DNA from: Zoogloea sp.
Lineage (GTDB): Bacteria; Pseudomonadota; Gammaproteobacteria; Burkholderiales; Rhodocyclaceae
Assembly (NCBI GenBank): GCA_016703645.1
Contig: JADJBR010000004.1
Span: forward strand, 443,501-507,500
Length of the DNA stretch: 64,000 nucleotides
Direction: 5' to 3'
The position numbers and the translations under genes were made by a program. Below are positions 24,327-50,076 of the stretch, one piece after another. The first letter of the stretch is position 1. Each line of letters begins with the position of its first letter. The notes beneath the pieces were generated by a model. It did no database searches and had not been told where the DNA came from. It saw only the letters and a program-made list of their open reading frames with translations.

Positions 24327-27300
24327 TCACTTTTCCTTCTTTTTACCTGCACCAGTCTTGGGCGGCGGTGCCTTGCTTCCCGCCTCTTTTGCCGCCGATG
24401 GGCCGGGTATTTTCGTGTCCCCTTGCGGATCGTTGAGGATGCACTTCAGCATCTCGGCACGCGTGGCATCGTCGCCATCGCCTCGGCATTTCAGCAGTTC
24501 GCCGAGGATGCGGATCTGGGCGGTGACCGAGTCCAGCTCGCGGGCTGTGGCCGTCACCCCCTTGATGGCATCGCGATATGTGTCGGCCAGCCCGTCGGCT
24601 GATTTCTCGCCTGAATGCAGCCAAAGGGCCAGCTCTGCGTCCGCCGACATCACCGCGTCGAAGAAATCGTAGGTATGCTCGAAACGCGCGCGGGCGGCGC
24701 GCCCGCACACCTCGGCGGCTTCGGCGTAGTTGGCCTCGGTGCCGAGTAGCGCATCCAGTTGCAGACGGTTGATGGCGTTGTAAGGGTTCCAGTCGGGAGA
24801 GGCACCAGGGCGGCCCTCGCAGCGGGCGTAGGCATCACGGGCGCAGGTCAGTGCCTCCGCCACCTTGTCCCAGGGTTCGCCACTACGGGCACGGATGATG
24901 GCCATGCGCTTGTGGGCACTGCCGAGGAGTGCCCAACGCTCCGGGTTGTTCCTCGTGGCAGCAGTGTTGGAGACTTCAGGTGACTCGGACGACAGGGCGA
25001 TGAGAAAGTGCAGGCGCGCCAGGGCGCTCTCAGCGAGGGTCTTGGCCTCTTCTAGCCGGGCGCTCTGAAGACTCAGGCGCTCGGCCTGGCGACTTTCCAG
25101 ATTGGCAAGCTGTTCGATGGCGAACAGGGGGACCAGACCCTTTGACGAATCGTCGCCAATGGCCCTCAGCCAGGCCGAGCGGGCATCGGGATAGCCTTCT
25201 TGGCCGTATTCGGCGTAAAGGCGGGCGAGGGCGTGCTGCACCTGCGGCTGCTTGATCCAGCCCTCCGGCACATGGCGCAGACGAGTCTGGATGCGCCGGG
25301 CAATCTGCTTGAAGCCATCGTCCTTTCCGCCGCGCTGAAACATCTGGCCCGCGTCGGGCAGGCGGCATTCGATTCGGCGCTGCTCGATCCAGTCGACGAG
25401 TTCGTGGCTCGAGCGCAGGGAGGTGTCGTCCCTGGTCGGGTTACGATGGACTTTGAGCTGGAAGGCGGGATCGCCATAGGCCTGGTAAGCACCCCAGGTG
25501 TTGTGGCCGGGGTGGGCTTCGTAACACATGCGACGGGCCTCGAAAATCGCCTCGCCGAAGCTGGCGCCTTGCTCGGCCATCTGCTCGAAGAAGGTCTCGA
25601 TGAAGGTGCGCGCCGCCGTGTCGTTCACCTCCCAACCGGCGGCCACCACGCAGCGCACGCCCATGTCGATAAGCTCTCGCGCCAGACTGGCGGCAAGTCG
25701 CCCGCCTCCCGAGCCTATCTTGCCCAGCTCGCAGCAGTTGAGGAAGACGAGGTCGGGAACACTCTCCATCTGGCCGATCTCGGCGGCAGTGAGGAGCAGA
25801 CCGTTGGAGAGCACCACGCCGCTGCGATGGCTGCCGTCGGCGGCCCGCCGCGCATGGATGCCGTGGGCGGAGATCATCAGCAGGCGGTAGGGCCGGGCGA
25901 AGAGGCGGGTGAAGATGTCCGCTGCCAGGGAGTCGGGCGGGGCCTCGGTGACCTGGTAGCCCGCGTCCGACAGCACCCGGGAGACCGTCATGCCTTCCGC
26001 TACGGCACCGGGCAGGGGGGGCAGGCAGTCCACCTCGGGTTTGCCATCTGCACCGATGCGCGGCTGCCAGTCGGCACCGCCAAATTGGGCATGGAAACCC
26101 TCGGTGGACGGCTCGGAGATCACACAGGCGGAGAGGGTGTCGGTGCGTGCCACCTGTCGGCGGAAGCGGGTGGTGATGAACTGGCGCACCACCCGGGTCT
26201 GCAGCACCATCGGACTGCCATCGACCTCCAGCATCTCCCAGGGCAGGTTGGCGGTGGTTTCATCCACCATCAGCAGCAGGTTGCCAGCCTGGCGGGCGGC
26301 GGCCTTGAACTCCAGCGGCACGAGTAGCTGGAACAGCGTGGCGCCGAAATCCAGACCCCTTGAATACAGGGTGGGGCTGCGGCTCTTGAGGCGGTCGTCG
26401 CAAAGCTTCTCCACGAGGCCCGGCTGGCGGATCTGGACGATGCTCTCGGCGCGGGCCTTGTCTCCCATGTAGATGAACTTGAGGCGGCCGGCATAGCGGA
26501 TCGTGGGGACACCGTCGAGCCAGAACGGCGTGGGCAGGCTGCCGTCGCGGGTCTTGTCGCCACAGCCATAGATGCGCAATAGCTGGCGCAGGTTCTCGGG
26601 CGGTATCGGCGGCTGGAAGCGCGGTGTGCTGCAGTCCGGCGGGCAGTCGGCTTCTTCCCGGTCGGCGTCGGAGACCATCAGACGCGGCCAGTAGTCGGAG
26701 AAGGGTGAGACGCTAAGGCGTTGGCGGGCACCTTCGCCGGTGAACAATTCTTCGGCGGCGTCGAGCTGGAAGTTCATCTGACGCAGCTCGCTCTTGAGGG
26801 TCGATCCCAGTTGGCTGACGGCGTGGGCGGCAGAGATGGCACTGTCGTGGAACACCTCGATGAACTGCAATTCGGACACCAGGGCGCGCCGGGTCTCGGA
26901 ATCCCCGTTCGGGCTGCCGTCGCCATTGGCGAAATCCCGGTTGGCCAGCAGCACGCCGAGCACCACCGCCTTCACCGATTCCCTCACGTCGAGCTGCAGC
27001 GCCGAGTTGGTACCGATCAGCAGGGATGCCAGCTTGAGGTGGAGGGTGTCGCCTCCGGGGGGCGGGTTGTTGGGCTGCGTTGTCGCTTGCTCTTCCCCGT
27101 AGCGGTCGGCTGCATGGAGGAGGTAACGCAGCACGCCCCCACGCACGGCCTCGGTGACGCCGCCCGCCGTGAGCCGGCCCATCTCTCCCAGGCCCACCAC
27201 GACCGCGCCGCGCCCGGTCTGGCGGTGGCGTTCAGCGGCATTGCGCGGCATCAGCACGATGGAGGCGTTGCCGATCTCGCCGGTATGGATGCCCAGCCGC

Positions 27301-29231
27301 TGGCGTTGGCTGAGGGCGCCGCCAACGAGATAGCGGTCGATCACCCCTTCGGCGGCGGCAATCGGGTCGCCCCGGTAATGGCCGCAGAGCACCGGGGTGT
27401 GCACGAAGCGCAGGTCCATCGCGCTGACGTAGACCTTCAGACGGCGGTTCCGGCTGCGCGGCACTTCCGGACGCAGGTGGCCGCCGAGCAGCCGGGTGGT
27501 GGCTTCGGGGGGGGAGGGGAAACCTTCGGGCGGCCCGGCCCGGTATTCCCGCACCGCGGGGGCCTTACCCCCGCGGCTGACGGGCAGCGGGCCGAGCTTG
27601 CGCGGGGTGCCGAGGGCGAGCAGGGATTCGATTTCTTCGAAGTGGGTTTCGGTGCTGGTCAGGCCCATGTGATCCACGGGCATCAGCCAGCTACGGTCGG
27701 CGGGCAGTCCGGGCAGGTGGCCCGAGGCCCAGGTGACCGAGCCGTCGCCCTCGGGCGTCCCGCGCAACACGATGCCACCCTGGCCCGCCTGTTTGACAAT
27801 GCCGCAGGGGGTGTTGTCGCTCTGGCCGTAGATGTAGGCGATGCGATCCGGTGCCTTGCGGACCCACTCGGTGTTGGCCACCTTTTCCCAGAACTTTTTG
27901 GCTTCATCAAGAACTGCTTGCTTCGGCTTGCCACCGAGTTTGCTGCCAAACCAGAAGTCATTATTGTGGGCGGCCAGGTCGACCCAGGTATCTTTCTGGT
28001 AGTAGTCGTTGCCGTCCGTTCCGTCCGGTGCTGGCAACAGATGGATGGCGCCGGGAAAGCCGGCGACGATGTCGAGGACGTCCTGCATGCGATGGCGCAG
28101 ATCCATCCGTGCCAGCAGGCGGATGGTGTCGGACTGCCCCAGCAGTGTGTGCACAAACAGATGGGCGCCTTGGTTGGGCGTGCCGAGCATCACCAGCCGG
28201 CTGTCTTTCCGGGCAGTGACTTTTTCCCACAGGGTCGTGTCGTGGGCAATGGCGGCCCGAACCACCAAGCCGCCCATGCTGTGCGCCAGGATGCGCACCG
28301 GGACATCGGGGTTTTCGTCGAGGAGCGCCTTCAGCCAACCGGCGAACTGTTCACCGAGATCCATCAGGGGTTTGCGCCAGTCGTAGGGGAAGAGCCTGAT
28401 CTCGTGGGTCTGGCCGAGCCGCTTCACGAGCTTGCCATAGGCAATGCCCACCAAGCCACATGCTGCCACCTCGGCCTTGCTGTCCATGGCAATCCTGCTC
28501 AAGGCACCGCGGGCGAGATCGAGGGGCGCGAGCCAGACGCGGTTGTTGTCGGCATCCAGGTTGCTGCCCATGATCCCGGGCAGGAAGACAAGGATAGGTG
28601 CCCGGCTGTTTCCGCGCGAAGGAGGGGGCGGGGGATCCTTGAGCACTTCGTCCAGGCCCGGTTCCGGCTGGGCGCGGGACGCCCATTCCGGCAGCTCTGC
28701 GGGATCGGGCGCACTGAGCCAGCGGTGCATTGCCGAGGGAAGCGGAAGTCCGTCGGCGGTGGCGGTGTCGTCGCGGAAGTAGCGGAAGTGGTTGACCTTA
28801 TCGCTCTGCACGAAGATCGCCCGGGCTTCCGCCTGATAGGCGAGGCCGCCGTACATGGAGGCGGTATCCACCACCAGATCATTGTCGGCCCGGTCGAAGA
28901 ACATCCAGTCGGTAAAGAGGGTACCGAGACGTTTGGCAAGGCCTCCGCCTTCGATATCGCCCGCGATGATCGCCATGGAGATGGTGCTGCGGTGGGGAGC
29001 CGACGCCAGAAGCATGCCCATCGCGGCGTCCGGCAGCATGGCCTCGATGCCCGGCAGCAAGCGCGGGTCCAGGCGCCGGTTGGCGATCTCGAGCACGATG
29101 CGGGTGAGTACGGCGATGCCCTTGTCGGTGGCTTCCTTGGCGGCGGCAACGGCAGCCGGGCCGGACGCGGCGGCCAGGGCGCCGGCTGCCCATCCCCCGG
29201 CCTTTTGGATGAGGCTCAGCAAGCCGGACAA
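24327..29231 (-). CDS. giant lipase / CHAT-protease fusion protein
   Basis: A 1634-residue protein. Residues ~1-200 form an uncharacterised region. Residues ~210-420 are an alpha/beta hydrolase (FLPGIMGSNL, nucleophile Ser318 in AHSMGG) of the LCAT/PGAP1-like lipase type. A long middle region follows. Residues ~1000-1290 are a caspase-like CHAT domain with His1123 in SAHG and Cys1166/1167 in LNCCELG, plus the usual downstream VVAAGWEVND. The C-terminal ~300 residues are helical, TPR-like, ending in a Lys/Pro-rich tail. Its start overlaps the end of the upstream hydrolase gene by 16 bp. Both catalytic centres look complete. It may act in stress-triggered cell killing or defence; this is inference. 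Confidence 0.8.
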   Translation of the reverse strand: MSGLLSLIQKAGGWAAGALAAASGPAAVAAAKEATDKGIAVLTRIVLEIANRRLDPRLLPGIEAMLPDAAMGMLLASAPHRSTISMAIIAGDIEGGGLAKRLGTLFTDWMFFDRADNDLVVDTASMYGGLAYQAEARAIFVQSDKVNHFRYFRDDTATADGLPLPSAMHRWLSAPDPAELPEWASRAQPEPGLDEVLKDPPPPPSRGNSRAPILVFLPGIMGSNLDADNNRVWLAPLDLARGALSRIAMDSKAEVAACGLVGIAYGKLVKRLGQTHEIRLFPYDWRKPLMDLGEQFAGWLKALLDENPDVPVRILAHSMGGLVVRAAIAHDTTLWEKVTARKDSRLVMLGTPNQGAHLFVHTLLGQSDTIRLLARMDLRHRMQDVLDIVAGFPGAIHLLPAPDGTDGNDYYQKDTWVDLAAHNNDFWFGSKLGGKPKQAVLDEAKKFWEKVANTEWVRKAPDRIAYIYGQSDNTPCGIVKQAGQGGIVLRGTPEGDGSVTWASGHLPGLPADRSWLMPVDHMGLTSTETHFEEIESLLALGTPRKLGPLPVSRGGKAPAVREYRAGPPEGFPSPPEATTRLLGGHLRPEVPRSRNRRLKVYVSAMDLRFVHTPVLCGHYRGDPIAAAEGVIDRYLVGGALSQRQRLGIHTGEIGNASIVLMPRNAAERHRQTGRGAVVVGLGEMGRLTAGGVTEAVRGGVLRYLLHAADRYGEEQATTQPNNPPPGGDTLHLKLASLLIGTNSALQLDVRESVKAVVLGVLLANRDFANGDGSPNGDSETRRALVSELQFIEVFHDSAISAAHAVSQLGSTLKSELRQMNFQLDAAEELFTGEGARQRLSVSPFSDYWPRLMVSDADREEADCPPDCSTPRFQPPIPPENLRQLLRIYGCGDKTRDGSLPTPFWLDGVPTIRYAGRLKFIYMGDKARAESIVQIRQPGLVEKLCDDRLKSRSPTLYSRGLDFGATLFQLLVPLEFKAAARQAGNLLLMVDETTANLPWEMLEVDGSPMVLQTRVVRQFITTRFRRQVARTDTLSACVISEPSTEGFHAQFGGADWQPRIGADGKPEVDCLPPLPGAVAEGMTVSRVLSDAGYQVTEAPPDSLAADIFTRLFARPYRLLMISAHGIHARRAADGSHRSGVVLSNGLLLTAAEIGQMESVPDLVFLNCCELGKIGSGGGRLAASLARELIDMGVRCVVAAGWEVNDTAARTFIETFFEQMAEQGASFGEAIFEARRMCYEAHPGHNTWGAYQAYGDPAFQLKVHRNPTRDDTSLRSSHELVDWIEQRRIECRLPDAGQMFQRGGKDDGFKQIARRIQTRLRHVPEGWIKQPQVQHALARLYAEYGQEGYPDARSAWLRAIGDDSSKGLVPLFAIEQLANLESRQAERLSLQSARLEEAKTLAESALARLHFLIALSSESPEVSNTAATRNNPERWALLGSAHKRMAIIRARSGEPWDKVAEALTCARDAYARCEGRPGASPDWNPYNAINRLQLDALLGTEANYAEAAEVCGRAARARFEHTYDFFDAVMSADAELALWLHSGEKSADGLADTYRDAIKGVTATARELDSVTAQIRILGELLKCRGDGDDATRAEMLKCILNDPQGDTKIPGPSAAKEAGSKAPPPKTGAGKKKEK

Positions 29232-30393
29232 AAGACTTCCAGATTGTCGGTGAGCAGTGCAGTACCGCGGGCAGGGCAGGCGACACGTATGTAACGGTCG
29301 ATCTGGAAACGCTTGGCGCGGAGCAGTTTGACGAGCTCGGCAAGTTTGTCTTGCTCCCGTTTGACGAACGCTTGCTCCTCGGCCCTGGCCTGCTTGTTGT
29401 TCGGAGCGTCCTTGCGCGGTGCGGGGTGATAGTCACGGATCAACGCGGCCAGACGTTCGTCGTTGCCGGAGCTGACGTCGATGCACAGCAGATCCCCCAC
29501 GAGACCGCCGCGGGAATGGGTGACGATGGAAAACCGTGCTTTTTCAGGCAGCACGGCTGCAAGCGCCAGCGCATTGTCGATGGGGCTTTCGGAAAACGTG
29601 TGGTGCTCATAGCCGAACAGACGGCCCTCGAATGCCTTATTGAGCGCCTGCCAGCTTTGGCTGCCCGGCAACTGGCCGAAGCTGCCCAGGGTGTGCGAGC
29701 CCGTGCCGTGAATGAAGACCAGGCCCGGTTTGTCGACGAGCGAGCGGACGTTTGGGTTGTCCGCGAGAAGCCGGGCGTGGGGATTGATAGCGCCCCGTCC
29801 CAGGGGTAGAGGCCGGGGGCATTGCGCCCGCGCGCTTCGATGGCCCAGACAATGGCCTTCGCCCCGGCATGGGATCCGGCGGCGACGATCAGATCCTCGA
29901 GGGCGTTGCCGGTGAGTTCGGCCATTTTTTCCCGGGCGGCACGGATGACGGCATCGTCCGAGAGGGTGAGGGTGCTCAGTTTGCGCCAAACCCACTCCCC
30001 GAGGCCCCGGTTGCGGGCATCGCGTGGGCGGAGGGCGGAAAGATCAAGGCTGCCATCGGCTCTGCGCAGCTCCGGTCGGGTGTCGGCGAGGCGATCCAGT
30101 CGATCCGACAGGGCATCGGCACGGATGAACACGGTGAGGCCATCGTCGGCTTCCAGGGCCAGCAGGCGCTTGTCGGGCTGAAGAACCTCGTCGCGGGTAT
30201 CTCGGCCCCGTGTTTCGAGCCCGATCTCCCAGGTCATTTCAACCGCCACGTTGGCCAGAAGGGCATCCACCTCCCCGTTGCTGTCGCCCCGGTTTGCCGG
30301 GCTGAGGATGGCCGAAGGAAGGGGCAGCTTGCGCCCGGGCGAGGTGTCGGGAGCGGCGACGAAGCGCAACTTGGGCAGGGCCGGGGTAGTCAC
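29216..30393 (-). pseudogene. alpha/beta hydrolase of the caspase/CHAT operon, single frameshift
   Basis: The N-terminal half reads from GTG 30393 (after GGAG) through VTTPALPKLRFVAAPD to DLIVAAGSHAGAKAIVW and LYPWDGAL. From about 29790 the homologous sequence continues in another frame (NPHARLLADNPNVRSLVD, VFIHGTGSHTLGSFG, and the nucleophile elbow IVTHSRGGLVGDLL) to the stop at 29216. One missing base in GGGGCGCTATCAATCC explains the break. Intact, it would be ~392 residues. It may be a real mutation, a consensus error, or less likely a programmed shift. It lies between the caspase gene and the CHAT fusion and would be part of their operon. Confidence 0.75.
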
Positions 30394-30480
30394 GGGAGGA
30401 CTCCAGAGCGAGGGGCGGGCGGGAAGCCCGGCCCACACAGGGCGGGCCGGGAACGGGCTGGCGGAGGCTTCAGCGCTGGA

Positions 30481-31281
30481 TCAGGAGAACACCTTCCAGG
30501 CCTTGGCCGATCGACTGCCGAAGATCTGCGGGTTCTGGGGTAGCTGATTGGTGGGCAGGTAGACGGGGCTGATGGCCTTGAACCACTGGGAATAGCTGGC
30601 GCTGGCCGGCAGGGCTGCCAGTGCTTTCAGGGCATAGTAGGTGAAGGCGCCGTTGGGGCGGCCTTTGAAGCTGGTGTCCCAGCTGAACTGGGTATCGGTG
30701 CAGCCGGCCAGCAGCAGATCACCGCCGCTGCGCGACAGGCCGCTGAGGCTGGGAAGGGTGAGGCCCCGGCTCGCCGGGGGCAGATCCTCGGGCTTCATCC
30801 ATACGCTGGGCGGCAGGAAGCGGGCGCGGGGCATGCCGGGGTCGAGGTCGCTGTCGTCGCCGCGGGTGACACTGCCCGAGTGGCAGCTATCGGAGATCAG
30901 CAGGACCCGCACGCCCGGTGCGTGGTTGCCGAAGATCACTGCAATCTCGTCGTCCAGAAGCACCTTGCCCGATCCGATATCCCAGGGGCACAGGCCCTCG
31001 TCACGACCATCCGGTTCATCGCCGTTCCGGTCGGGCACCCAAGTGCCGTGGCCGGAGTAGGTGATGACGACGGTGTCGCCCTTTACGGCCCCGGAAATGA
31101 GCGCGCTCATGGCGGAGACCATGGCGGCCTTGGTGGCCTGGCTGTCGATCAGCTTGGTGACGGAGAAGCCGCGGGCGGTGAGGGCGGCGGCCCAGTCGTT
31201 GGCATCATTGACGCAGCCCGAGAGGTCGTTCTGGGTTCCGGGGTAGTCATTGATGCCGATGCACAATGCCTTCTTGCTCAT
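30481..31281 (-). CDS. caspase-like (peptidase C14) protease
   Basis: A 266-residue caspase-fold protease. The ALCIGINDYPG start, the catalytic His78 in ITYSGHGTW and Cys133 in LISDSCHSG match the metacaspase/orthocaspase dyad. It has no signal peptide or fused effector domain. The ATG at 31281 follows GGGAG; a longer frame to 31365 is not family-like. It is the first gene of a three-gene minus-strand operon with the hydrolase and the lipase/CHAT protein, so it may process one of them. Confidence 0.85.
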   Translation of the reverse strand: MSKKALCIGINDYPGTQNDLSGCVNDANDWAAALTARGFSVTKLIDSQATKAAMVSAMSALISGAVKGDTVVITYSGHGTWVPDRNGDEPDGRDEGLCPWDIGSGKVLLDDEIAVIFGNHAPGVRVLLISDSCHSGSVTRGDDSDLDPGMPRARFLPPSVWMKPEDLPPASRGLTLPSLSGLSRSGGDLLLAGCTDTQFSWDTSFKGRPNGAFTYYALKALAALPASASYSQWFKAISPVYLPTNQLPQNPQIFGSRSAKAWKVFS

Positions 31282-31433
31282 GATTTTTCTCCCTTTCTTG
31301 ACGCCCCCATCGGGCAGGGGCGCGGCCGTCAGGGGGTGATGGTGCCCGGCATATGCCCGGGCCATGGACTATGGATTTAAGCATCCGTGCTTGAAAGGTC
31401 AACGGCTTCCGGCTGTTTGTGACGGTGACGACC

Positions 31434-36357: not shown

Positions 36358-37338
36358 ATGAGCCAGCTTGATCGCATCACCCGAATCAACGCGATGTTGT
36401 CCGAGCGTCGACTGGTTTCCCGAGAGTCCCTGCTGGAAACGCTTGAGGTCTCTCCGGCCACGTTGAAACGTGACCTTGCCTTTCTTCGAGACAACATGAA
36501 CACCCCGATCATCTGGGATCGGGACCGGGGCGGCTACCGGTTGGACTCCTCGCAAACCACCGGCACGCCGATTTCCGTGCCGAACATGTGGTTCTCCGAC
36601 AAGGAAATCCATGCCCTCTTGACGATGCAGCACCTGCTCGCAAATCTCGATCCGGGAGGCTTGATTTCGCCCCACGTCGAGCCACTGATGGTTCGTCTCA
36701 ACACCATGCTGGGTGCGGCGGATGATCCATCCGAAGAGATTCGTCGGCGGGTGATGATCATCGGCGTCGGAAAGCGAAGCCTGAAGCTGGCCCATTTCGA
36801 GAACATCGGTGTGGCGCTGTTGCGGCGCAGGCGCCTGCGCATCCACTATTTCGCGCGCAGCAGTGGGGAAGAAAGCGAACGAGAGATCTCGCCCCAGCGC
36901 CTCGTCCACTACAGGGAAAACTGGCATCTGCTCGCGTGGTGCCACCTCCGTGACGAGCTGCGCAACTTCGCCGTAGATAGCCTCCGGGAAGCCCAATTGC
37001 TGGACCGAGCGGCCAAGGAGGTGTCTGACGAGGCCCTTAGCGCAGTGCTAGGTCCCGGCTACGGAATCTTCGCGGGCAATCAACTTCAGATCGCGCGCCT
37101 GCGCTTCAGTCCCGAGCGTGCTCGTTGGGTTGCCACCGAACACTGGCATCCGGAGCAGAAAGGATGGCATGAGCTCGAAGGTCACTATCTGCTCGAAGTG
37201 CCCTACGCCGACCATCGGGAACTCTTGATGGACATCCTCAAGCACGGCCGCCATTGCCAAGTGCTCGGGCCGGAATCACTGCGGGCAGTGGTGGCTGAGG
37301 AAATCCGTCAACTAGTGGATGTCTATTTGTATGACTGA
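36358..37338 (+). CDS. WYL-domain transcriptional regulator
   Basis: A 326-residue regulator: N-terminal winged HTH (~5-60, RLVSRESLLETLEVSPATLKRDLAFL) and a C-terminal WYL domain (~150-240, around RRRLRIHYFAR and REISPQRLVHYRENWHLLAWC), plus the usual WCX extension. WYL domains bind ligands or nucleic acids and such regulators are often found beside CRISPR-Cas or phage-defence genes. It is the natural candidate to control the cas operon. The two GTGTTG-N4-CAACAC dyads downstream could be its operators. Confidence 0.9.
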   Translation: MSQLDRITRINAMLSERRLVSRESLLETLEVSPATLKRDLAFLRDNMNTPIIWDRDRGGYRLDSSQTTGTPISVPNMWFSDKEIHALLTMQHLLANLDPGGLISPHVEPLMVRLNTMLGAADDPSEEIRRRVMIIGVGKRSLKLAHFENIGVALLRRRRLRIHYFARSSGEESEREISPQRLVHYRENWHLLAWCHLRDELRNFAVDSLREAQLLDRAAKEVSDEALSAVLGPGYGIFAGNQLQIARLRFSPERARWVATEHWHPEQKGWHELEGHYLLEVPYADHRELLMDILKHGRHCQVLGPESLRAVVAEEIRQLVDVYLYD

Positions 37339-37370
37339 GAGCGGACGGCGAGCTAAGGGCAGGTGGAAGA

Positions 37371-37403
37371 TGAGGGGGGATGGTTGGGAAACCAGCCCCC
37401 TCA
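37371..37403 (-). terminator. strong hairpin between the WYL gene and the mini-array
   Basis: TGAGGGGG pairs with CCCCCTCA, with an inner GGTT/AACC stem. No clear T tract on either strand. It could end the WYL transcript (plus strand) or the predicted crRNA-like transcript (minus strand), for which it lies directly after the second repeat. Confidence 0.5.
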
Positions 37404-37408
37404 CTTCG

Positions 37409-37436
37409 CGGTGCAACCCCATGAAATGGGGAACTC
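37409..37436 (-). repeat. degenerate CRISPR repeat A
   Basis: Read on the minus strand, this is GAGTTCCCCAT-TTC-ATGGGGTTGCACCG in two halves. It follows the array repeat (GTGTTCCCCAC...GTGGGGATGAACCG) with a 3-nt instead of 4-nt loop. The stem end has changed C-G to T-A on both sides, so pairing is kept. The 5' part retained in a crRNA 3' hairpin is well preserved (GAGTT vs GTGTT). Confidence 0.75.
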
Positions 37437-37451
37437 AACTAGCGCTTGATT

Positions 37452-37469
37452 AGTGTTGCGCACAACACT
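37452..37469 (+). promoter_or_regulatory. dyad 1, AGTGTTG-N4-CAACACT (inside the pseudospacer)
   Basis: A perfect 7-bp inverted repeat with a 4-nt centre, forming the first 18 nt of the pseudospacer. It could be an operator for the WYL protein as well as the seed of a guide RNA. Confidence 0.6.
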
Positions 37470-37497
37470 TGGTTCATCCCCACCCAGTGGGGAGGCT
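37470..37497 (-). repeat. degenerate CRISPR repeat B
   Basis: Minus strand: CCCCAC-TGG-GTGGGGATGAACCA. The stem is intact and the 8-nt crRNA 5' handle is ATGAACCA against ATGAACCG in the array. The first five bases, which would not be part of the mature RNA, are diverged. Its start is exactly 61 nt from that of repeat A, equal to the array period. Confidence 0.8.
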
Positions 37498-37526
37498 TTG
37501 GAAGATATCAGATGAGCGAAGGGTCA

Positions 37527-37562
37527 AGCGGATTTTAGTTATGTGTTGCGAACAACACTCTT
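37527..37562 (-). promoter_or_regulatory. predicted Cascade target site with AAG PAM and dyad 2
   Basis: On the minus strand, AAG (37562-37560) is followed by AGTGTTGTTCGCAACAC. This matches pseudospacer bases 1-8 and 10-17, with one mismatch at 9, then diverges. AAG is a canonical type I-E PAM. The same bases form a second dyad, GTGTTG-N4-CAACAC (37543-37558). The PAM overlaps the predicted -35 of the cas promoter, so Cascade binding would block it. Pairing limited to the PAM-proximal part would favour binding without Cas3 cleavage. Confidence 0.65.
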
Positions 37563-37588
37563 GAGGTTTGGTTGTTGCCTGATAGTAT
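37561..37588 (+). promoter_or_regulatory. predicted cas operon promoter
   Basis: A -35 TTGAGG (37561-37566), a 16-nt spacer and a -10 TAGTAT (37583-37588), giving a start near 37595. This is the best sigma-70 match in the WYL-cas3 gap. Confidence 0.6.
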
Positions 37589-37630
37589 TGCTTCGTGCCC
37601 TACTCTCAAATCGAGGCGCGGAGATCAGTC

Positions 37631-37771
37631 ATGGATAGTGTTCTTTCTTATGTGGCTCTTATTTCTGAGCAGCCAATTTCCCTGCAGGTGCTGCTGTTAC
37701 TCGGCGGATTCGCGATCATTCGGCGGATTAAGTCCATAACGATTCGCTTTGGCGATGAACGGGACCGCTGA
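37631..37771 (+). CDS. small predicted single-pass membrane protein ahead of cas3
   Basis: A 46-codon ORF starting at ATG 37631 behind GGAGA (6-nt spacing). It encodes MDSVLSYVALISEQ, then a hydrophobic segment (ISLQVLLLLGGFAII) and a basic tail. It lies between the predicted cas promoter and cas3, so it would be the first product of the operon. No family is recognised and it may be spurious, but the ribosome site and the membrane-like profile support it. Confidence 0.4.
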   Translation: MDSVLSYVALISEQPISLQVLLLLGGFAIIRRIKSITIRFGDERDR

Positions 37772-37877
37772 AACGACTCTTCAGTGCGCTTTGTGGCGGG
37801 GCTGTGCGCGAGGCTCATCCGGTGAGCCTGCTCACCTTCAGAATCGGCTGTATCGAATTCATCCGTTCGGAGTTCCG

Positions 37878-40589
37878 ATGACACGCTTTGGTGATCTTCA
37901 GAAGGCTAGCCGATCCTTGTGGGCCAAGAGTGCGGATGGCATCGGGCATGGTTTGCTGGCGCACATGCTGGACGTGGCAGCGGTTGCCCTCACCATCTTG
38001 CGACGGGAGAGTCCGAGCAGCCGTGCACGCATGGCGGAGTGTCTTGGGCTTCCGATGCCCAGCGCAGACGTCTGGGTTGCCGGGTGTGTCGGGCTTCATG
38101 ATTTTGGCAAGGGCATCGCTGGTTTCCAGGCAAAGTGGCCAGAGGGGAAACTGCGCGATGAGGCAGCGGGCCTGAGCTTCGACGCATTCTCCCTGAAGGC
38201 AGTGACCGATCATGCCTGTGCCACCGCTGCGCTGCTTTATGACCCCCTGGTCGAGCGAACCGGTGCTGATCCCCAGTGGGTGGACGCCGTGCTCCAGGCG
38301 ATCAGCGCACACCACGGCTTCAATTTCATCAGGCGGGAGATCGACTCGGCGCATCCGCCCAAAGAGGGTAAGGCCTGGAAGCTCGCCAGGCGTGAGGTCT
38401 TTGAGGCCTATTGGGCCGCCCTCGACCCCCAGGGCGCTCCGTCTTTGGATACCTTGTCTCTTCCGTCGGTGGCCTGGCTGGCGGGGCTGACCAGCGTGGC
38501 GGACTGGATCGGATCAAACGAGGTCTACTTCACACCGGAGGAGCGGGGCGACACCCTTAGCGCCCATTTCGAAGCCTCCCTCAGGCTAGCCGAGTTGGCT
38601 TTGAATGACATTGGCTGGCCAGGTTTTGCCGCACTTCTGGATGCACCGCATAGCACGGACGACCTGCTTGGTCGTATTGTCGGTTCAGACCGGCCCATGT
38701 CTGCACGGCCTCTGCAGGAGGTTGGTGATCGGCTCCTGGCCCAGACTCATGGGCCCACCTTGTTGCTGGTCGAGGCGCCCATGGGGGAAGGCAAAACAGA
38801 GCTGGCCATGCTGGCACACTTGCGCCTTCAGGCTGCAAACCAGCATCGCGGACTGTATGTGGCCTTGCCTACTCAGGCGACGGGCAATGCCATGTTCGAC
38901 CGGACCCTGCGCTTTCTCCGGGCTTTTTCCGGCGAGGCGAGGCTCGATATCCAGCTAGCCCACGGTGGCGCGATGCTTGATGAACGTATCGCGCGGTTGC
39001 GGGGTGTTTTTGGGAGGACCGATGACAGCGTCGCCTCGTCGGCCTGGTTTGCCCAGCGTCGGCGAGCGCTGATCTCCCCCTATGGCGTCGGGACCATTGA
39101 TCAGGCGCTGTTTGCGACGCTCAATGTCAAGCACCACTTTGTGCGCTTGTGGGGTCTGGCTAATCGGGTGGTGGTGCTGGACGAGGTTCACGCCTATGAC
39201 ACCTATACCAGTGGATTGATTGCCGCGTTGCTGCGCTGGCTGAAGGCCCTGGGGTGCTCCGTTGTGCTGATGAGCGCCACGCTTCCCGGCAAGCGCCGCA
39301 AGGAGTTGCTGAACGCCTGGGGTGTGGACCCGGCATCTGTGGAAGGGCTCGGCTACCCCCGAGTCATGCTGGCCGACAATGGCGGGGCCAAAGGTGCATG
39401 CTTTGGGGCACGACCGCTGCCACCCATCCAGGTGTCGGGTATCGAAGAGTCCATTGATGCCATCGCTGACAAGGCTCGTGCGCTAATGGCGGAGGGTGGT
39501 TGCGGCGGCATCATCGTCAACACCGTCGCCCGGGCGCAGGCCTTGTACACCGCTCTGGCCGGAACCTTGCCATACCCTTGTGAGCTGATCCTGTTCCACG
39601 CCCGTTATCCCGCCGATGAGCGCGGTGAACGGGAGCGGCAGGTATTGACCACCTTCGGGAAGGGCGGAGTACGGCCATCTCGGGCTTTGCTGATCGCCAC
39701 CCAGGTGGCAGAGCAGAGCTTGGACATCGATCTGGATTTCCTGATTTCCGATCTGGCGCCTATCGACCTGCTGTTGCAGCGCGTCGGGCGCTTGCACCGT
39801 CACGAGCGGGCTCGGCCCGAGGCTCATCTTCACCCAAGGTTCTTTGTAGCCGGATTGATCCGCGGACACTTTCCTGAGCTGGAAGAGACCCGTTGGAAGT
39901 ACGTCTATGACCCTTACATCCTGGGCCGTACCTGGGCTCTGGCCGCCATCGAGCCGGAATGGCAGTTGCCCGGAGACATCGATCGTCTAGTCCAAAGGGT
40001 GTATGACGACAACGTCGAGCTACCGGAAGATCTGCCTGCTTCAGACCGAAAACGCATTGAGGAGGGCGATTACGGCGAGTTCTACGCCAAGGTCCGGTAT
40101 GAGGCCCAACAAGCGCTCAATGCCGCCATCGACGCAAACCTCGAACCCCAGGATGCGTATATCGGCAAGCCCCATGGCAGTGAGGACGGCAATGATCTGG
40201 GCATCGAGAATCGCACTCGCCTGGGCGACGATGGCATCTCGGTGATTCCCGTGCAGGTTGTTTCTGAGGGGTGGCAGATAAAAGGTAGTGACATCCCCAT
40301 CGATCCACAGCAACCGGTCACCGATACCGTCGCTCGCGCCCTGTATGCCCGACAGATGAAGATCAGCCGCAAGGCGATTGTTGCCGCCTTGGGGGCGGAG
40401 ACTGCCCCACCGGCCTTTGAGTCGCATCCTCTATTGCGGGATATGAAGCCGCTTAGGTTGGTGAATGGCTGCGTCGAACTGGGCAATCTGATTGTGCGTC
40501 TGGACCCCGTGCTGGGTCTCGTTTTGGAAACCCCTGACACCGGTTTTCCCCTGTCACAGCCGAGGAAGAATGATGAGTACCTGTTTTAA
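37878..40589 (+). CDS. cas3: CRISPR-associated helicase/nuclease Cas3
   Basis: A 903-residue Cas3. The N-terminal HD nuclease has H24 and HD at 74-75 (VGLHDFGKG). The SF2 helicase follows, with Walker A at 302-307 (PMGEGKTE), the DEVH box at 435-438, SATLP, and motif VI QRVGRLHRH. Cas3 is recruited by Cascade to unwind and degrade target DNA. The ATG at 37878 is preferred; an upstream frame extension to 37749 lacks family similarity. First cas gene in the operon, overlapping cas8e by 17 bp. Confidence 0.95.
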   Translation: MTRFGDLQKASRSLWAKSADGIGHGLLAHMLDVAAVALTILRRESPSSRARMAECLGLPMPSADVWVAGCVGLHDFGKGIAGFQAKWPEGKLRDEAAGLSFDAFSLKAVTDHACATAALLYDPLVERTGADPQWVDAVLQAISAHHGFNFIRREIDSAHPPKEGKAWKLARREVFEAYWAALDPQGAPSLDTLSLPSVAWLAGLTSVADWIGSNEVYFTPEERGDTLSAHFEASLRLAELALNDIGWPGFAALLDAPHSTDDLLGRIVGSDRPMSARPLQEVGDRLLAQTHGPTLLLVEAPMGEGKTELAMLAHLRLQAANQHRGLYVALPTQATGNAMFDRTLRFLRAFSGEARLDIQLAHGGAMLDERIARLRGVFGRTDDSVASSAWFAQRRRALISPYGVGTIDQALFATLNVKHHFVRLWGLANRVVVLDEVHAYDTYTSGLIAALLRWLKALGCSVVLMSATLPGKRRKELLNAWGVDPASVEGLGYPRVMLADNGGAKGACFGARPLPPIQVSGIEESIDAIADKARALMAEGGCGGIIVNTVARAQALYTALAGTLPYPCELILFHARYPADERGERERQVLTTFGKGGVRPSRALLIATQVAEQSLDIDLDFLISDLAPIDLLLQRVGRLHRHERARPEAHLHPRFFVAGLIRGHFPELEETRWKYVYDPYILGRTWALAAIEPEWQLPGDIDRLVQRVYDDNVELPEDLPASDRKRIEEGDYGEFYAKVRYEAQQALNAAIDANLEPQDAYIGKPHGSEDGNDLGIENRTRLGDDGISVIPVQVVSEGWQIKGSDIPIDPQQPVTDTVARALYARQMKISRKAIVAALGAETAPPAFESHPLLRDMKPLRLVNGCVELGNLIVRLDPVLGLVLETPDTGFPLSQPRKNDEYLF

Positions 40590-42180
40590 TCTGCTGGACG
40601 AGCCCTGGATTCCCGTGCGTCTGACTTCCGGCGCAGTCGAGGACGTGGGTTTGCTGGCTTTGTTTGATCGACTGGGAGAGATTACGGCACTCGCTGAGAC
40701 CTCGCCGCCAAGTCTCGTTGCACTGCATCGCCTGTTGCTGGCAGTAACAAACCGTGCTCTTTTCATGGCTCTGGGTACTTGGCGCGACAAGGATAGGGCC
40801 CAGTGGTATCGGGACGGGCTGCCCGTGGATGTCATGCGTGATTACCTGGAGAAATGGCGGGAGCGTTTCTGGTTGTTTCACCCGGAAGTGCCCTTCATGC
40901 AGGTCGCTGCGCTGGCCCATTGTGAGGAAACCCGGAGCAAGACCAAGCCGTGGACGCAGATTGCCCTGGATCGGGCGAGTGGCAATACGCCTGTGCTCTT
41001 CGACCATTCGGTGGATGGGGCCCCCTCTGCGATTGATGCGGCTCTGGCCTTACGGTACCTGTTGGGCTTCCTCCAGTTCACTCCGGGTGGGCTTGTGAAA
41101 GTGATCCGTGGTTCGGATAAGGCCGGTGCCCTGGCAAACACCGCCGCTGCAGTTCCCATGGGAGGCAATCTCTGCCAGACCCTTTGTCTGGGGCTCCACG
41201 GGATCGACAGGCGTAGCGAGAACGATCTACCCGCGTGGGAGCAGCCCGCCCCCAGTGTCCCGGACCTTAGTGCGGATGCCCGCTTGGCAACTGGGCCCAA
41301 TGATCGTTACACCCGCCTGTCCCGTGCCGTGTTGTTGGAGCCCGAAGGGCCTCGGTGTGCGGTTCGAGTGATCCGCTTTGCAGCCGGCTTGGCCTTGGAG
41401 GACGACGCGCAGGCGCCGGACCCCATGGCGAGCTACCGGATGGGCACAAATGGTCTTGTGCGCTTGTCCTTCAGCGAAGGGCGGGCACTGTGGCGTGATC
41501 TGCCAAGCCTGCTGGCGGACCCCTTGGGCAAGCACGCCAGTCCAGCCGCTGTGCTTGGGTGGGCGGCCAATCTCCAGCGTGCCGTGGGGAATCGACGTGC
41601 CCATCTTCCTGTACTCGTTGCCGGTTTGGCGAGTGATCAAGCGAAGCTGCTGCGTTGGCGATCAGAGCGCTTTGCGCTGCCGGCTACCGTGCTGTCTGAG
41701 CCCGATAGTGCCCAGTTTCTGCGCACTCTGCTAGGTCAGGCCGAAGAGAGTTTTCACCGGCTACGGGGTATGGCGGTGGATATGGTGGCGGAGACTCTGG
41801 CTGATCCGGGCAACAAGGACACCCGCTCCCGTGCCCGAATCATGGTGGATGGCGGGCCCTGCGAGGCAACGTTCTTTTCCGCTGCCGAGCGCGCCTTGCC
41901 CGATCTGATGAGCCATATCCGCGAAGACGCGCTGGATGAGGCCGATGCTGTCTGGCGGCAAGTCCTGTTGGCGGCTTCCCTCTCAGCATGGGATGCCGTG
42001 AGCCGGAGCATGGGTAGCTCGTCGGTCGCCCTGCGCGCTCAAGCACTCCATCGGTGGAAGCTTGATCGATTGTTGCGGGAATTGCGCAACGAGACCAGTG
42101 ATGGCTCAGCAGGGCCTGTCCCGCCTTTTTCATCCTCGTCCCAAACTCAACCCAAGCCCGACCAGGAGGTTCATTCGTGA
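40573..42180 (+). CDS. cas8e: Cascade large subunit Cas8e (Cse1/CasA)
   Basis: A 535-residue Cse1 protein, starting MSTCFNLLDEPWIPVRL, the family N-terminus. Cas8e recognises the PAM and recruits Cas3. Two ATGs lie side by side (40570, 40573); the second has the better spacing to GAGGAAG. The gene overlaps cas3 and is followed by cse2 through a GTGA overlap. Length is normal. Confidence 0.93.
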   Translation: MSTCFNLLDEPWIPVRLTSGAVEDVGLLALFDRLGEITALAETSPPSLVALHRLLLAVTNRALFMALGTWRDKDRAQWYRDGLPVDVMRDYLEKWRERFWLFHPEVPFMQVAALAHCEETRSKTKPWTQIALDRASGNTPVLFDHSVDGAPSAIDAALALRYLLGFLQFTPGGLVKVIRGSDKAGALANTAAAVPMGGNLCQTLCLGLHGIDRRSENDLPAWEQPAPSVPDLSADARLATGPNDRYTRLSRAVLLEPEGPRCAVRVIRFAAGLALEDDAQAPDPMASYRMGTNGLVRLSFSEGRALWRDLPSLLADPLGKHASPAAVLGWAANLQRAVGNRRAHLPVLVAGLASDQAKLLRWRSERFALPATVLSEPDSAQFLRTLLGQAEESFHRLRGMAVDMVAETLADPGNKDTRSRARIMVDGGPCEATFFSAAERALPDLMSHIREDALDEADAVWRQVLLAASLSAWDAVSRSMGSSSVALRAQALHRWKLDRLLRELRNETSDGSAGPVPPFSSSSQTQPKPDQEVHS

Positions 42181-42773
42181 TCGACTCATCCACGCCAGTA
42201 CAAAGCCCAAGCCATGGCGAGACATTCGTCAATCATCTTCTTGAACTTGCCAAGTCGAATCGGGGCGCCATGGCCGAATTGCGGCGCAGCTTGAGCCATG
42301 AGCCAGGCGCATATGTCGGTGCATTCCCCTACGTGGAGCGCTTTGCCGGTGCCCGCCATGCCCAGGACGCGTATCGCAGGGCGCTATATCTCATCGCAGG
42401 CCTCTTTGCTCTGCACCCCCTGCATCGAAAGGGGAGCAGTTTTGCCTCGGCTTACGGCCGGCTCAGCGAGCAGCGAAAGAGTAGCCAGAAGAGCGATGGC
42501 ATTGAGCGTCGCTTCATCGCGCTCTTGTCAGCAGACGCACAAAGCCTTCCTGCACACCTCAGGCAGGCCGTCTCTTTGCTCGCGGCGGATGATCTTTCCT
42601 TCGACTACGTCCGCTTGCTGAACGACTTGGCCGTCTGGCTCGATCCCCGAAAGCTGGAGCGCCTGGACGAGTTGAGGCAGCGCTGGGCGCAGGACTTTTA
42701 TCGTGCCACGGCGCTGCCCCTCGGTTCGGCCGCATCGACCGAAGTCTCCGTCAACTCCCTTAACCACTCCTGA
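42177..42773 (+). CDS. cse2: Cascade small subunit Cse2 (CasB)
   Basis: A 198-residue helical protein with the Cse2 pattern (RGAMAELRRSLSHEPGAY, then PYVERFAGARHAQDAYRRALYLIAGLFALHP). Two copies normally form the belly of Cascade and stabilise the R-loop. Translation starts at GTG overlapping the cas8e stop, suggesting coupling. Confidence 0.92.
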   Translation: MIDSSTPVQSPSHGETFVNHLLELAKSNRGAMAELRRSLSHEPGAYVGAFPYVERFAGARHAQDAYRRALYLIAGLFALHPLHRKGSSFASAYGRLSEQRKSSQKSDGIERRFIALLSADAQSLPAHLRQAVSLLAADDLSFDYVRLLNDLAVWLDPRKLERLDELRQRWAQDFYRATALPLGSAASTEVSVNSLNHS

Positions 42774-42788
42774 TCTGGTAAAGCCGCC

Positions 42789-43934
42789 ATGTCCCTCTTT
42801 GTTGAATTCCATCTTATTCAGAATTTTGCCCCGTCAAACCTCAATCGTGACGACACCGGCGCTCCCAAGGATGCGCTGTTTGGTGGCTATCGGCGGGCGA
42901 GGGTAAGCAGCCAGTGCTTCAAGCGAGCCATTCGCCTCCTGGCCAAAGAGAAGGCTGCTATCCCTGCCGAGTTTCTGGGGGTTCGGACCAAGAAGCTCGT
43001 TCAGTTGGTTGAAGATCGCCTCGCTGCTCTGGGACGGACGGACGCTCGCTCCCGAGTCGAGGCGGCATTGGGCGCTGCGGGTCTCAAGGTCAAGGATGAC
43101 GGCCGAACCGAGTACCTGCTCTTCCTGGGCGAAAAGGAGGTGGAAGGTTTTGCGGGACTGGTCAATGAATTCTGGGACGAACTCGGAACGAGTGCGGCGC
43201 CAGCTACCGAGAAAAAGACCAAAAAGGAGACCAAGGCCAGTGCCCCCGCTGAAGTCCAGAAGAAAGCCAAGGCCTTGCTTGATGGGGGCAAGGCGGTAGA
43301 TGTGGCCTTGTTCGGCCGCATGCTGGCGGATCTCCCCGAGGTGAACCAGGACGCGGCCTGCCAGGTGGCCCACGCTATCAGCACACACCGGGTCGAGCGG
43401 GAGTTTGACTATTTCACCGCCGTGGATGACAAGGGCGATCCGGACGAGAGCGGTGCCGGAATGATCGGCCAAATCGAGTTCAATTCCGCCACCTTTTACC
43501 GCTATGCGGTGATTGACGTGGCCAAGCTGGTCGCGAACCTGCAGCAGGATGCTGACCTCGCACTGACAGGCCTGTCTGCTTTTGCCAGGGCGATTGCACT
43601 GGCCATTCCCACCGGAAAGCAGAACACTTTTGCCGCGCACAATCCGCCCGCATTTGTGGGAGTCACCCTGCGCCGGTCAAGCCCCATCAACCTCTCCAAC
43701 GCATTCGAAAAGCCGGTCTGGCCTGACCATCAGCTTCCCCTGAGCACGCTCTCAGTCAAGGCGATGTCGGACTACGACGACAAGGTGAGCGGATTCTACG
43801 GTGATGGCCAGGATGCCTGGGCCTACCTGGATCTTACCGGCGCGTGGCCGACCACCAAGGGCGAGGCGCAGCACAGCCTCGATGGCCTGACCCGCTGGCT
43901 GCAGGAGCAGGTGACCGCCAGGCTGGAGGCTTGA
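42789..43934 (+). CDS. cas7e: Cascade backbone protein Cas7e (CasC)
   Basis: A 381-residue Cas7e. It begins MSLFVEFHLIQNFAPSNLNRDD and contains the family segment GGYRRARVSSQCFKRAIR. An Ala/Lys-rich insert (~135-158, EKKTKKETKASAPAEVQKKA) is unusual but does not disturb the RRM-type core. Six copies bind the crRNA along the Cascade backbone. Confidence 0.94.
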   Translation: MSLFVEFHLIQNFAPSNLNRDDTGAPKDALFGGYRRARVSSQCFKRAIRLLAKEKAAIPAEFLGVRTKKLVQLVEDRLAALGRTDARSRVEAALGAAGLKVKDDGRTEYLLFLGEKEVEGFAGLVNEFWDELGTSAAPATEKKTKKETKASAPAEVQKKAKALLDGGKAVDVALFGRMLADLPEVNQDAACQVAHAISTHRVEREFDYFTAVDDKGDPDESGAGMIGQIEFNSATFYRYAVIDVAKLVANLQQDADLALTGLSAFARAIALAIPTGKQNTFAAHNPPAFVGVTLRRSSPINLSNAFEKPVWPDHQLPLSTLSVKAMSDYDDKVSGFYGDGQDAWAYLDLTGAWPTTKGEAQHSLDGLTRWLQEQVTARLEA

Positions 43935-43935
43935 G

Positions 43936-44586
43936 ATGGCGACGCTGCTATTGCGTCTGTCAGGGTTCATGCAGTCCTGGGGTACAACCAGCCGGTTTGA
44001 CGAGCGGGATTCGCAGCTTGAGCCTTCCAAGTCGGGTGTGCTCGGCCTGATCTGCGCGGCCCTCGGGCGAGACAGAGCGGAGCCAGTGGATGATCTTGCG
44101 CGCTTGCGCATGGGCGTGAGGGTAGACCGGGAAGGCGTGCTGATGCGGGACTACCAGACAGCAACAGGGGTCATGATCGCGACGGGCAAGCCTGATCTGA
44201 AACGTACCGTGGTGAGCCCCCGCTACTACCTTGCCGATGCGGCCTTCCTGGTTGGCCTGGAAGGCGCCGACAGGGATCTCCTCGCCCGCATTCAGGATGC
44301 GCTCAGGCATCCGGTGTGGCCCTTGTGCCTAGGTCGAAAGAGCTTTCCACCGGGTGAATCTGTGTGGCTGCAGGATGGTCTCGTGGAAGGCAATCTGAAG
44401 CAGGCGCTGGTGGGCCATCCGCTGATTGCCAAGCCGTTGCAGGAGCATCCGGGGCGGCGCTTGCGCCTGATTCTTGAGCATGCTCATGAGGGCGCTGTAC
44501 GCCTGGATCAACCGATAGCGCCTTTCGCGCTGCGGCGGTTCGGCCCACGCTTTGTTTTGCCGGAGGTCATTGATGTTCCTCGCTAA
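43936..44586 (+). CDS. cas5e: Cascade subunit Cas5e (CasD)
   Basis: A 216-residue Cas5e with the RAMP start LLLRLSGFMQSWGTTSRFDERDS and later FPPGESVWLQ. It binds the 5' handle of the crRNA. It starts 1 bp after cas7e and overlaps cas6e by 14 bp. Confidence 0.93.
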   Translation: MATLLLRLSGFMQSWGTTSRFDERDSQLEPSKSGVLGLICAALGRDRAEPVDDLARLRMGVRVDREGVLMRDYQTATGVMIATGKPDLKRTVVSPRYYLADAAFLVGLEGADRDLLARIQDALRHPVWPLCLGRKSFPPGESVWLQDGLVEGNLKQALVGHPLIAKPLQEHPGRRLRLILEHAHEGAVRLDQPIAPFALRRFGPRFVLPEVIDVPR

Positions 44587-45199
44587 GCTTGTTCTAGATG
44601 GCGCATTTGCCCACGTTCGGCGTGATCTGGCGGACGCCTATCAACTGCACCGGACCTTGGTGAGGTTTTTTGCTGACGACGAGGCAAGCCCGCCTAGGCG
44701 TTTCCTGTGGCGTCTCGAGGCCGATGCCGGCCAATGCGCTGTGGGTGCTGCGACAGTCCTGATCCAGTCGGCCCAGCCGGGCAATTGGGAGGCTATCGAG
44801 AATCTCGAAGGCTATCGGTTGGCGGGCCAGAAGGACGTGGAACTCGACGCCTTGCTGCGGCGCGGACGGCATTACTCGTTTCGCGTTCTTGCCAATCCGA
44901 CAGTGACTCGGGCTGGCAAACGTTATGGTTTGGTCGGTGAGGAGGCGCAGCGCGAGTGGTTGAGCCGTCAGGCAGAGCGCAATGGCTTTGCCCTGCAGGA
45001 ATCTGTTGTTACCGGATCATCTCGCTTGACCGTCAAACAATCCCGCAGTGGGCATCGTATGACTGTGGATACAGTACGTTTCGATGGCGTGCTGACGGTG
45101 GAGGATGTCGGGAAGGTGCATGACGTGCTGATCAATGGGCTGGGCCACGCCAAGGCGCTTGGGTTAGGGCTTCTCTCCATCGCACCGCTGCAGAGCTGA
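44573..45199 (+). CDS. cas6e: CRISPR endoribonuclease Cas6e (CasE)
   Basis: A 208-residue Cas6e with the likely catalytic His26 in DAYQLHRTLVRFF and the C-terminal glycine-rich GLGHAKALGLGLLSIAP loop. It cuts pre-crRNA at the base of the repeat hairpin. It should also process the degenerate mini-array upstream of cas3, whose hairpins are preserved. Confidence 0.93.
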   Translation: MFLAKLVLDGAFAHVRRDLADAYQLHRTLVRFFADDEASPPRRFLWRLEADAGQCAVGAATVLIQSAQPGNWEAIENLEGYRLAGQKDVELDALLRRGRHYSFRVLANPTVTRAGKRYGLVGEEAQREWLSRQAERNGFALQESVVTGSSRLTVKQSRSGHRMTVDTVRFDGVLTVEDVGKVHDVLINGLGHAKALGLGLLSIAPLQS

Positions 45200-45203
45200 A
45201 CAG

Positions 45204-46407
<1,204 letters not shown>

Positions 46408-46498: not shown

Positions 46499-50076
<3,578 letters not shown>

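What the first reader, a model, noticed from the sequence alone, without database searches (positions are those of the whole stretch)
37437..37588. Pseudospacer matches a PAM-flanked site abutting the cas promoter: probable Cascade autorepression
The first 17 pseudospacer bases match 37559-37543 (minus strand) with one mismatch at position 9. AAG, a canonical I-E PAM, lies directly 5' of the match and overlaps the predicted -35 (TTGAGG, 37561). Pairing stops after ~17 nt, which should allow binding but not efficient Cas3 degradation. Cascade loaded with this RNA would sense its own abundance and repress cas transcription. Comparable RNA-guided cas control (CreR/CreA-type RNAs, Cas9 with scaRNA or long tracrRNA) is established elsewhere; here it is inferred from sequence.
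Basis: partly seen in the sequence, partly recalled or inferred. Interest (0 to 1): 0.95.

Follow-up and report, generated by a model that had tools for sequence, protein, structure and literature searches.

The report
CRISPR-guarded toxin-like module beside cas genes
A worn two-repeat mini-CRISPR next to a bacterium's cas genes appears to steer the CRISPR complex onto the promoter of a tiny hydrophobic-peptide gene, more probably as an addiction (toxin-antitoxin) switch than as a brake on the cas genes themselves.

Summary
A minus-strand mini-array (two 28-nt degenerate repeats, 61 nt apart like the main array) carries a pseudospacer matching 37559-37543 at 16 of 17 positions, next to 5'-AAG. 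AAG fits this system: of four array spacers with matches only in other genus genomes, three have AAG and one TAT.

The "cas promoter" part holds poorly. In relatives the WYL-regulator gene is followed closely by a conserved palindrome and a -10-like box before cas3. That block survives here at 37812-37852. The targeted promoter (37561-37588) lies in a 473-bp stretch absent from five of five other I-E loci with this regulator.

Guide gene upstream and opposite, PAM-flanked partial target at the promoter, short ORF: this is the layout of the CRISPR-repressed toxin (CreTA) reported in the Citrobacter rodentium type I-E locus. I read it as a new I-E CreTA-like module (0.55), with CreR-type cas autorepression second.

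Main caution: the matched sequence is a near-perfect palindrome found only at these two places in the genome, so an unknown protein operator is not excluded. Transcription, processing, repression and toxicity are inferred.

The parts
36358..37338 (+). WYL/WCX-domain HTH regulator
   Evidence: Pfam WYL, WCX, HTH_DeoR
37366..37407 (-). very stable GC-rich hairpin directly behind the mini-array; possible end of its transcript (no T run)
   Evidence: -24.7 kcal/mol, z -5.1, 0 of 200 shuffles as stable
37409..37436 (-). degenerate repeat 2 (3' handle side)
   Evidence: 21 of 28 to array repeat
37437..37469 (-). pseudospacer, 33 nt; first 18 nt (37452-37469) a near-perfect palindrome
37470..37497 (-). 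degenerate repeat 1, gives a 5' handle ATGAACCA (7 of 8 to array repeat)
   Evidence: 22 of 28 to array repeat
37527..37559 (-). partial target (protospacer); 16 of 17 matched in 37559-37543
37560..37562 (-). AAG PAM
37561..37588 (+). predicted promoter TTGAGG-16-TAGTAT of the 46-aa ORF
   Evidence: positions; weak consensus (8 of 12, by hand), not listed
37582..37609 (-). predicted promoter TTGAGA-16-TACTAT facing the mini-array
   Evidence: 9 of 12; 1 found, shuffles mean 0.3
37631..37771 (+). 46-aa hydrophobic ORF, toxin-like (inferred); GGAG at 37620-37623
37812..37828 (.). conserved palindrome GGCTCA-N5-TGAGCC, inferred operator of the WYL regulator
   Evidence: 30 of 43 WYL loci at >=10 of 12
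37839..37844 (+). conserved -10-like box of the inferred cas3 promoter
   Evidence: column conservation
37878..46407 (+). complete type I-E operon cas3-cas8e-cse2-cas7-cas5-cas6e-cas1-cas2
46499..50076 (+). main CRISPR array, 59 repeats

Best explanation
A type I-E CreTA-like module. The minus-strand mini-array makes a crRNA-like RNA (CreA-like) that Cas6e trims and Cascade loads. Cascade then binds the AAG-flanked partial target that overlaps the -35 of the opposite promoter and keeps a 46-aa hydrophobic peptide gene off; pairing stops at about 17 nt, so Cas3 is not expected to degrade the site. If Cascade is lost or blocked (mutation, anti-CRISPR), the peptide is made and harms the cell, which holds the cell to its CRISPR system. 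Some read-through control of cas3 may come with it. Shown: sequence anatomy, PAM fit, complete cas genes, absence of the stretch from orthologous loci. Inferred: transcription, processing, repression, toxicity.
For: Two degenerate repeats in register with the pattern described for creA genes (PMC8501985 section 14): repeat 1 keeps the 5' handle (7 of 8) and has lost its 5' flank (1 of 5), repeat 2 keeps its 5' flank (4 of 5); repeat 2 has a paired C:G to U:A change in the stem (counted by hand). Match 16 of 17 next to AAG; AAG at 3 of 4 spacers with matches only in other genomes. All Cascade genes present. The targeted promoter lies in a stretch absent from five of five other I-E loci with this regulator: L051, L060, L061, L068, L040 (I-E by Cas8e), and its first gene is the 46-aa ORF with GGAG seven bases before ATG. 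That ORF is among the 4 most hydrophobic of 175 ATG ORFs of 35-70 aa in the window, itself included, and is predicted as two helices, pLDDT 87.6 from one sequence. Same layout in C. rodentium I-E, where the toxin must be translated (PMC12055562, passages).
Against: The matched stretch is a palindrome, as a protein operator would be. Position 9 is mismatched; in haloarchaeal CreA positions 1-5 and 7-11 were each needed (PMC8501985 section 15). The plus promoter is weak by consensus. The ORF has no convincing relative and lower third-position GC (0.53) than 11 neighbouring genes (0.64-0.86). Only one genome carries the cassette, so no co-variation of guide and target could be tested. One of the four informative spacers has TAT, not AAG.
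Confidence: 0.55

Rival explanations
1. CreR-type autorepression: Cascade with this RNA represses a promoter that drives cas3 and the operon and so senses crRNA and Cascade abundance; the 46-aa ORF is a leader ORF or noise.
For: Same guide-target evidence. No terminator-like site found between ORF and cas3. CreR reported for I-B, I-E and V-A (PMC13131331, one passage).
Against: The target lies 319 bp before the cas3 ATG, upstream of a separate ORF; a conserved palindrome and -10-like box just before cas3 are kept.
Confidence: 0.2
2. The two palindromes are operators of an unknown dimeric regulator; the mini-array is old, and the pseudospacer match follows from the two operators.
For: Near-perfect 18-bp palindrome in the pseudospacer and a weaker one in the target; only these two at <=1 mismatch in the genome.
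Against: The WYL regulator's family goes with another palindrome (30 of 43 loci). An operator would not need to start exactly at pseudospacer position 1 nor to be flanked by AAG, which precedes 1.75% of positions in the region.
Confidence: 0.15
3. A decayed two-repeat array with no present function.
For: Only one genome carries it; the ORF is an orphan.
Against: Both repeat stems are kept, one with a paired change; 5' handle 7 of 8 intact; target match 16 of 17.
Confidence: 0.1

Closest known systems
CreTA of the Citrobacter rodentium type I-E locus (PMC12055562; abstract and passages seen)
   Same: Type I-E; putative crRNA-like antitoxin upstream of and opposite to a short ORF; partial target next to an I-E PAM at the promoter; ~500-bp intergenic region in the cas locus; orphan ORF.
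   Different: There between cas3 and casA, 96-bp ORF, PAM ATG, target on the UP element, toxicity and need for translation shown. Here between a WYL regulator and cas3, 46-aa ORF, AAG on the -35, nothing shown by experiment.
Haloarchaeal type I-B CreTA (PMC8501985; abstract, sections 14 and 15)
   Same: Two divergently degenerated repeats; seed pairing to the toxin promoter with a PAM at a promoter element.
   Different: There an RNA toxin with a minimal ORF that sequesters a rare tRNA, toxin and antitoxin in one operon; here divergent genes and a longer, hydrophobic ORF.
CreR cas-regulating RNAs (PMC13131331 one passage, PMC12737573 section 9)
   Same: crRNA-like RNA with partial match to a promoter in the cas locus; I-E is among the types named.
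   Different: CreR acts on the cas promoter; here an ORF and a conserved cas3 regulatory block lie between target and cas3.
CrePA (PMC12737573 section 10)
   Same: Protein toxin repressed by Cascade with a crRNA-like antitoxin.
   Different: CreP typically has a KilA-N domain; the 46-aa ORF matches no family.

Membership tests
CreTA (CRISPR-repressed toxin-antitoxin), type I-E form | crRNA-like gene with one or two degenerate repeats in a locus with a complete effector | tested here: met
   22 and 21 of 28, 61 nt apart; Cascade genes complete
CreTA (CRISPR-repressed toxin-antitoxin), type I-E form | Partial, PAM-flanked match to the promoter of a short gene | tested here: met
   16 of 17, AAG, overlaps -35; the promoter itself is only predicted
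CreTA (CRISPR-repressed toxin-antitoxin), type I-E form | The short gene is toxic when Cascade is absent | not testable with these tools
   needs expression in a laboratory strain
CreTA (CRISPR-repressed toxin-antitoxin), type I-E form | Guide RNA transcribed and processed | not testable with these tools
   needs RNA sequencing
CreR (cas-regulating RNA) | Target is the promoter of the cas operon | tested here: inconclusive
   conserved cas3 regulatory block lies downstream of the target; read-through not excluded
Operators of the local WYL regulator | Palindrome shared with other loci of this WYL family | tested here: not met
   family palindrome is GGCTCA-N5-TGAGCC (30 of 43 loci); AGTGTTG-N4-CAACACT at <=1 mismatch in 2 of 23 genus genomes, this one included
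CrePA | Toxin with a KilA-N domain (typical, per review) | tested here: not met
   no family match for the ORF

The most novel reading that the evidence does not exclude
An RNA guide that has copied a palindromic operator: the cassette arrived with a peptide-toxin promoter under a protein repressor, the repressor was lost, and a spacer taken from that operator let Cascade take over its role. The result would be a CRISPR-repressed hydrophobic peptide inserted between a WYL regulator and its own cas operator, giving the cas locus two stacked layers of control.
Probability: 0.15. Interest if true: 0.75.

Novelty: new member of a known kind. Interest (0 to 1): 0.55.

Why it matters
It would be a further candidate for a type I-E CRISPR-repressed toxin, in an environmental betaproteobacterium and at another place in the locus, which would suggest that such addiction cassettes insert repeatedly into I-E loci. 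It is compact and testable. It also shows that a mini-array next to cas genes should not be taken for cas autorepression before the first gene behind its target is examined. The conserved palindrome plus -10-like box found on the way gives a testable operator for a widespread cas-linked WYL regulator.

Tried and rejected
WYL operator as explanation of the palindromes: rejected, the family has another conserved palindrome (control: 148 of 3000 random stretches of the same loci score >=10 of 12, true sites included, against 26 of 43 near the regulator's stop).

Self-folding as an objection to RNA guidance: 23 of 58 real spacers fold at least as stably and one has an equally long perfect arm, so not used against it. 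Leader homology between main array and mini-array: one 13-nt stretch, 22 of 1000 shuffles as good, judged weak. Phage or plasmid origin: only chance-level matches for the pseudospacer in phages, none for the cassette in plasmids, none for the palindrome in viral contigs. Cassette DNA in 395 family genomes: besides the own genome six short matches of at most 37 nt, judged chance. Weak hits of the 46-aa ORF in three genomes and three phage records: judged chance. Rfam: two sub-threshold eukaryotic matches.

PAM: phage records gave no usable protospacer. Genus genomes did: 18 loci examined, of which 3 have AAG, 13 are matches of spacers 34 and 44 without AAG, and 2 (L103, L108) are no full-length match and were dropped. 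Other short matches in the list were not examined.

Mini-arrays in other I-E loci: a strict repeat pattern found only an ordinary array in one of 16 loci (L086); that pattern would miss worn repeats, so it is no survey. Seven of the 12 loci printed have no such regulator next to cas3 and say nothing on the insertion.

Full report
Setting. I take the organism to be a Zoogloea; that is inference. The locus is a WYL-type regulator (36358-37338), a 539-bp intergenic region, a complete type I-E operon (37878-46407) and a 59-repeat array.

Observation. The minus strand of the intergenic region holds two 28-nt degenerate repeats, 37497-37470 and 37436-37409, which match the array repeat at 22 and 21 of 28 positions with one loop base left out. 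One other stretch in window 1-46400 scores 21, in an unrelated ORF at 31012. They are 61 nt apart, the main array's usual period. The 33-nt pseudospacer between them matches 37559-37543 at 16 of 17 positions and then 5 of 16. AAG precedes the match. Against 19 AAG sites in the region none of the 58 array spacers exceeds 11 of 17, and 0 of 5000 shuffled pseudospacers reached 13.

PAM. I tested whether AAG fits this system. Array spacers 38, 13 and 40 have 97%, 91% and 91% identical sites in other genus genomes, each preceded by AAG; spacer 57 has a 91% site preceded by TAT. Spacers 34 and 44 match the own genome perfectly, without AAG (GCG and CGT), so they should be inert. I did not test which of these sites lie in prophages.

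The palindrome. The first 18 nt of the pseudospacer are a near-perfect palindrome and the target is a weaker one. At <=1 mismatch in the arms these are the only two in the genome; one further single copy occurs in one of the 22 other genus genomes. This is the main reason for doubt, since two palindromes could be operators. Against that, the local WYL regulator goes with a different palindrome. Of 43 distinct WYL loci, this one included, 30 carry GGCTCA-N5-TGAGCC at 10 or more of 12 positions near the end of the regulator gene, followed by a -10-like box (+28 A in 80%, +31 A in 87%, +32 T in 83% of the 30) and an A at +40 in 70%. The 43 are the WYL homologues that my searches fetched, not only I-E neighbours; 13 did not reach the threshold. 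A self-folding guide is no objection: 23 of 58 real spacers fold at least as stably.

Which promoter is targeted. In the 29 other loci with the palindrome it lies -67 to +26 nt from the regulator's stop; here it is 473 nt away. Five other I-E loci with this regulator next to cas3 (L051, L060, L061, L068, L040; subtype by Cas8e) have it at 3 to 8 nt, so they lack the extra stretch. The palindrome and the -10-like box survive here at 37812-37852, directly before cas3 (ATG 37878). I infer that this is the ancestral cas3 promoter and that the 473 bp are an insertion; separate losses in the other five are less economical. The targeted promoter TTGAGG-16-TAGTAT lies inside the insertion; it is a weak consensus match that the scan did not list. 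The scan did list an overlapping minus-strand promoter (TTGAGA-16-TACTAT) that would transcribe the mini-array. A very stable hairpin follows the mini-array on that strand (z -5.1).

The ORF. Behind the plus promoter, with GGAG seven bases before the ATG, is a 46-aa ORF. It is among the 4 most hydrophobic of 175 ATG ORFs of 35-70 aa in the window, itself included. AlphaFold2 on the single sequence gives two helices at mean pLDDT 87.6, pTM 0.44. It has no convincing relative in 274 class genomes, 170 family genomes, plasmids, phages, Pfam, NCBIfam, PADLOC or PHROGs. Its third-position GC (0.53) is below that of 11 neighbouring genes (0.64-0.86), so it may be foreign, or not a gene.

Mechanism. 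The arrangement equals that described for the C. rodentium I-E locus: a putative crRNA-like antitoxin upstream of and opposite to a short ORF, a partial target next to an I-E PAM at the promoter, and a toxin that must be translated (PMC12055562, passages). The repeat pattern resembles that of creA genes (PMC8501985 section 14). I therefore propose a CreTA-like module. CreR-type autorepression is a real rival: CreR in I-E is in print (PMC13131331, passage) and no terminator-like site separates the ORF from cas3. The CreR paper was not held and the CrePA paper was not asked for, so those descriptions come from reviews. The mismatch at position 9 falls in the block that haloarchaeal CreA needs; pairing at 10-17 may compensate, which is inference.

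Verdict. Observation confirmed. RNA-guided binding likely. Target probably a toxin-like gene rather than the main cas promoter. A new member of a known kind.

Noticed in passing
37812-37852 and WYL loci: Conserved palindrome GGCTCA-N5-TGAGCC plus a -10-like box and an A at +40 near the 3' end of cas-linked WYL regulator genes: a probable operator-promoter for this regulator family.
   Followed up: partly
array spacers 34 (48546) and 44 (49159): Both match the own genome perfectly (G000:C3:93810 and G000:C7:166482 regions) but without AAG, i.e. apparently tolerated self-matching spacers.
   Followed up: partly
37366-37407: Exceptionally stable hairpin (z -5.1) between the regulator gene and the mini-array, without a T run.
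   Followed up: partly
37745-37756 and 37884-37895: A 12-nt stretch near the end of the 46-aa ORF resembles the start of cas3 at 11 of 12 positions, perhaps chance.
   Followed up: no
24327-31365 (minus strand): By eye: a 1634-aa protein that reads like a hydrolase with a CHAT-like part and a caspase-like protein nearby; no family search was made.
   Followed up: no
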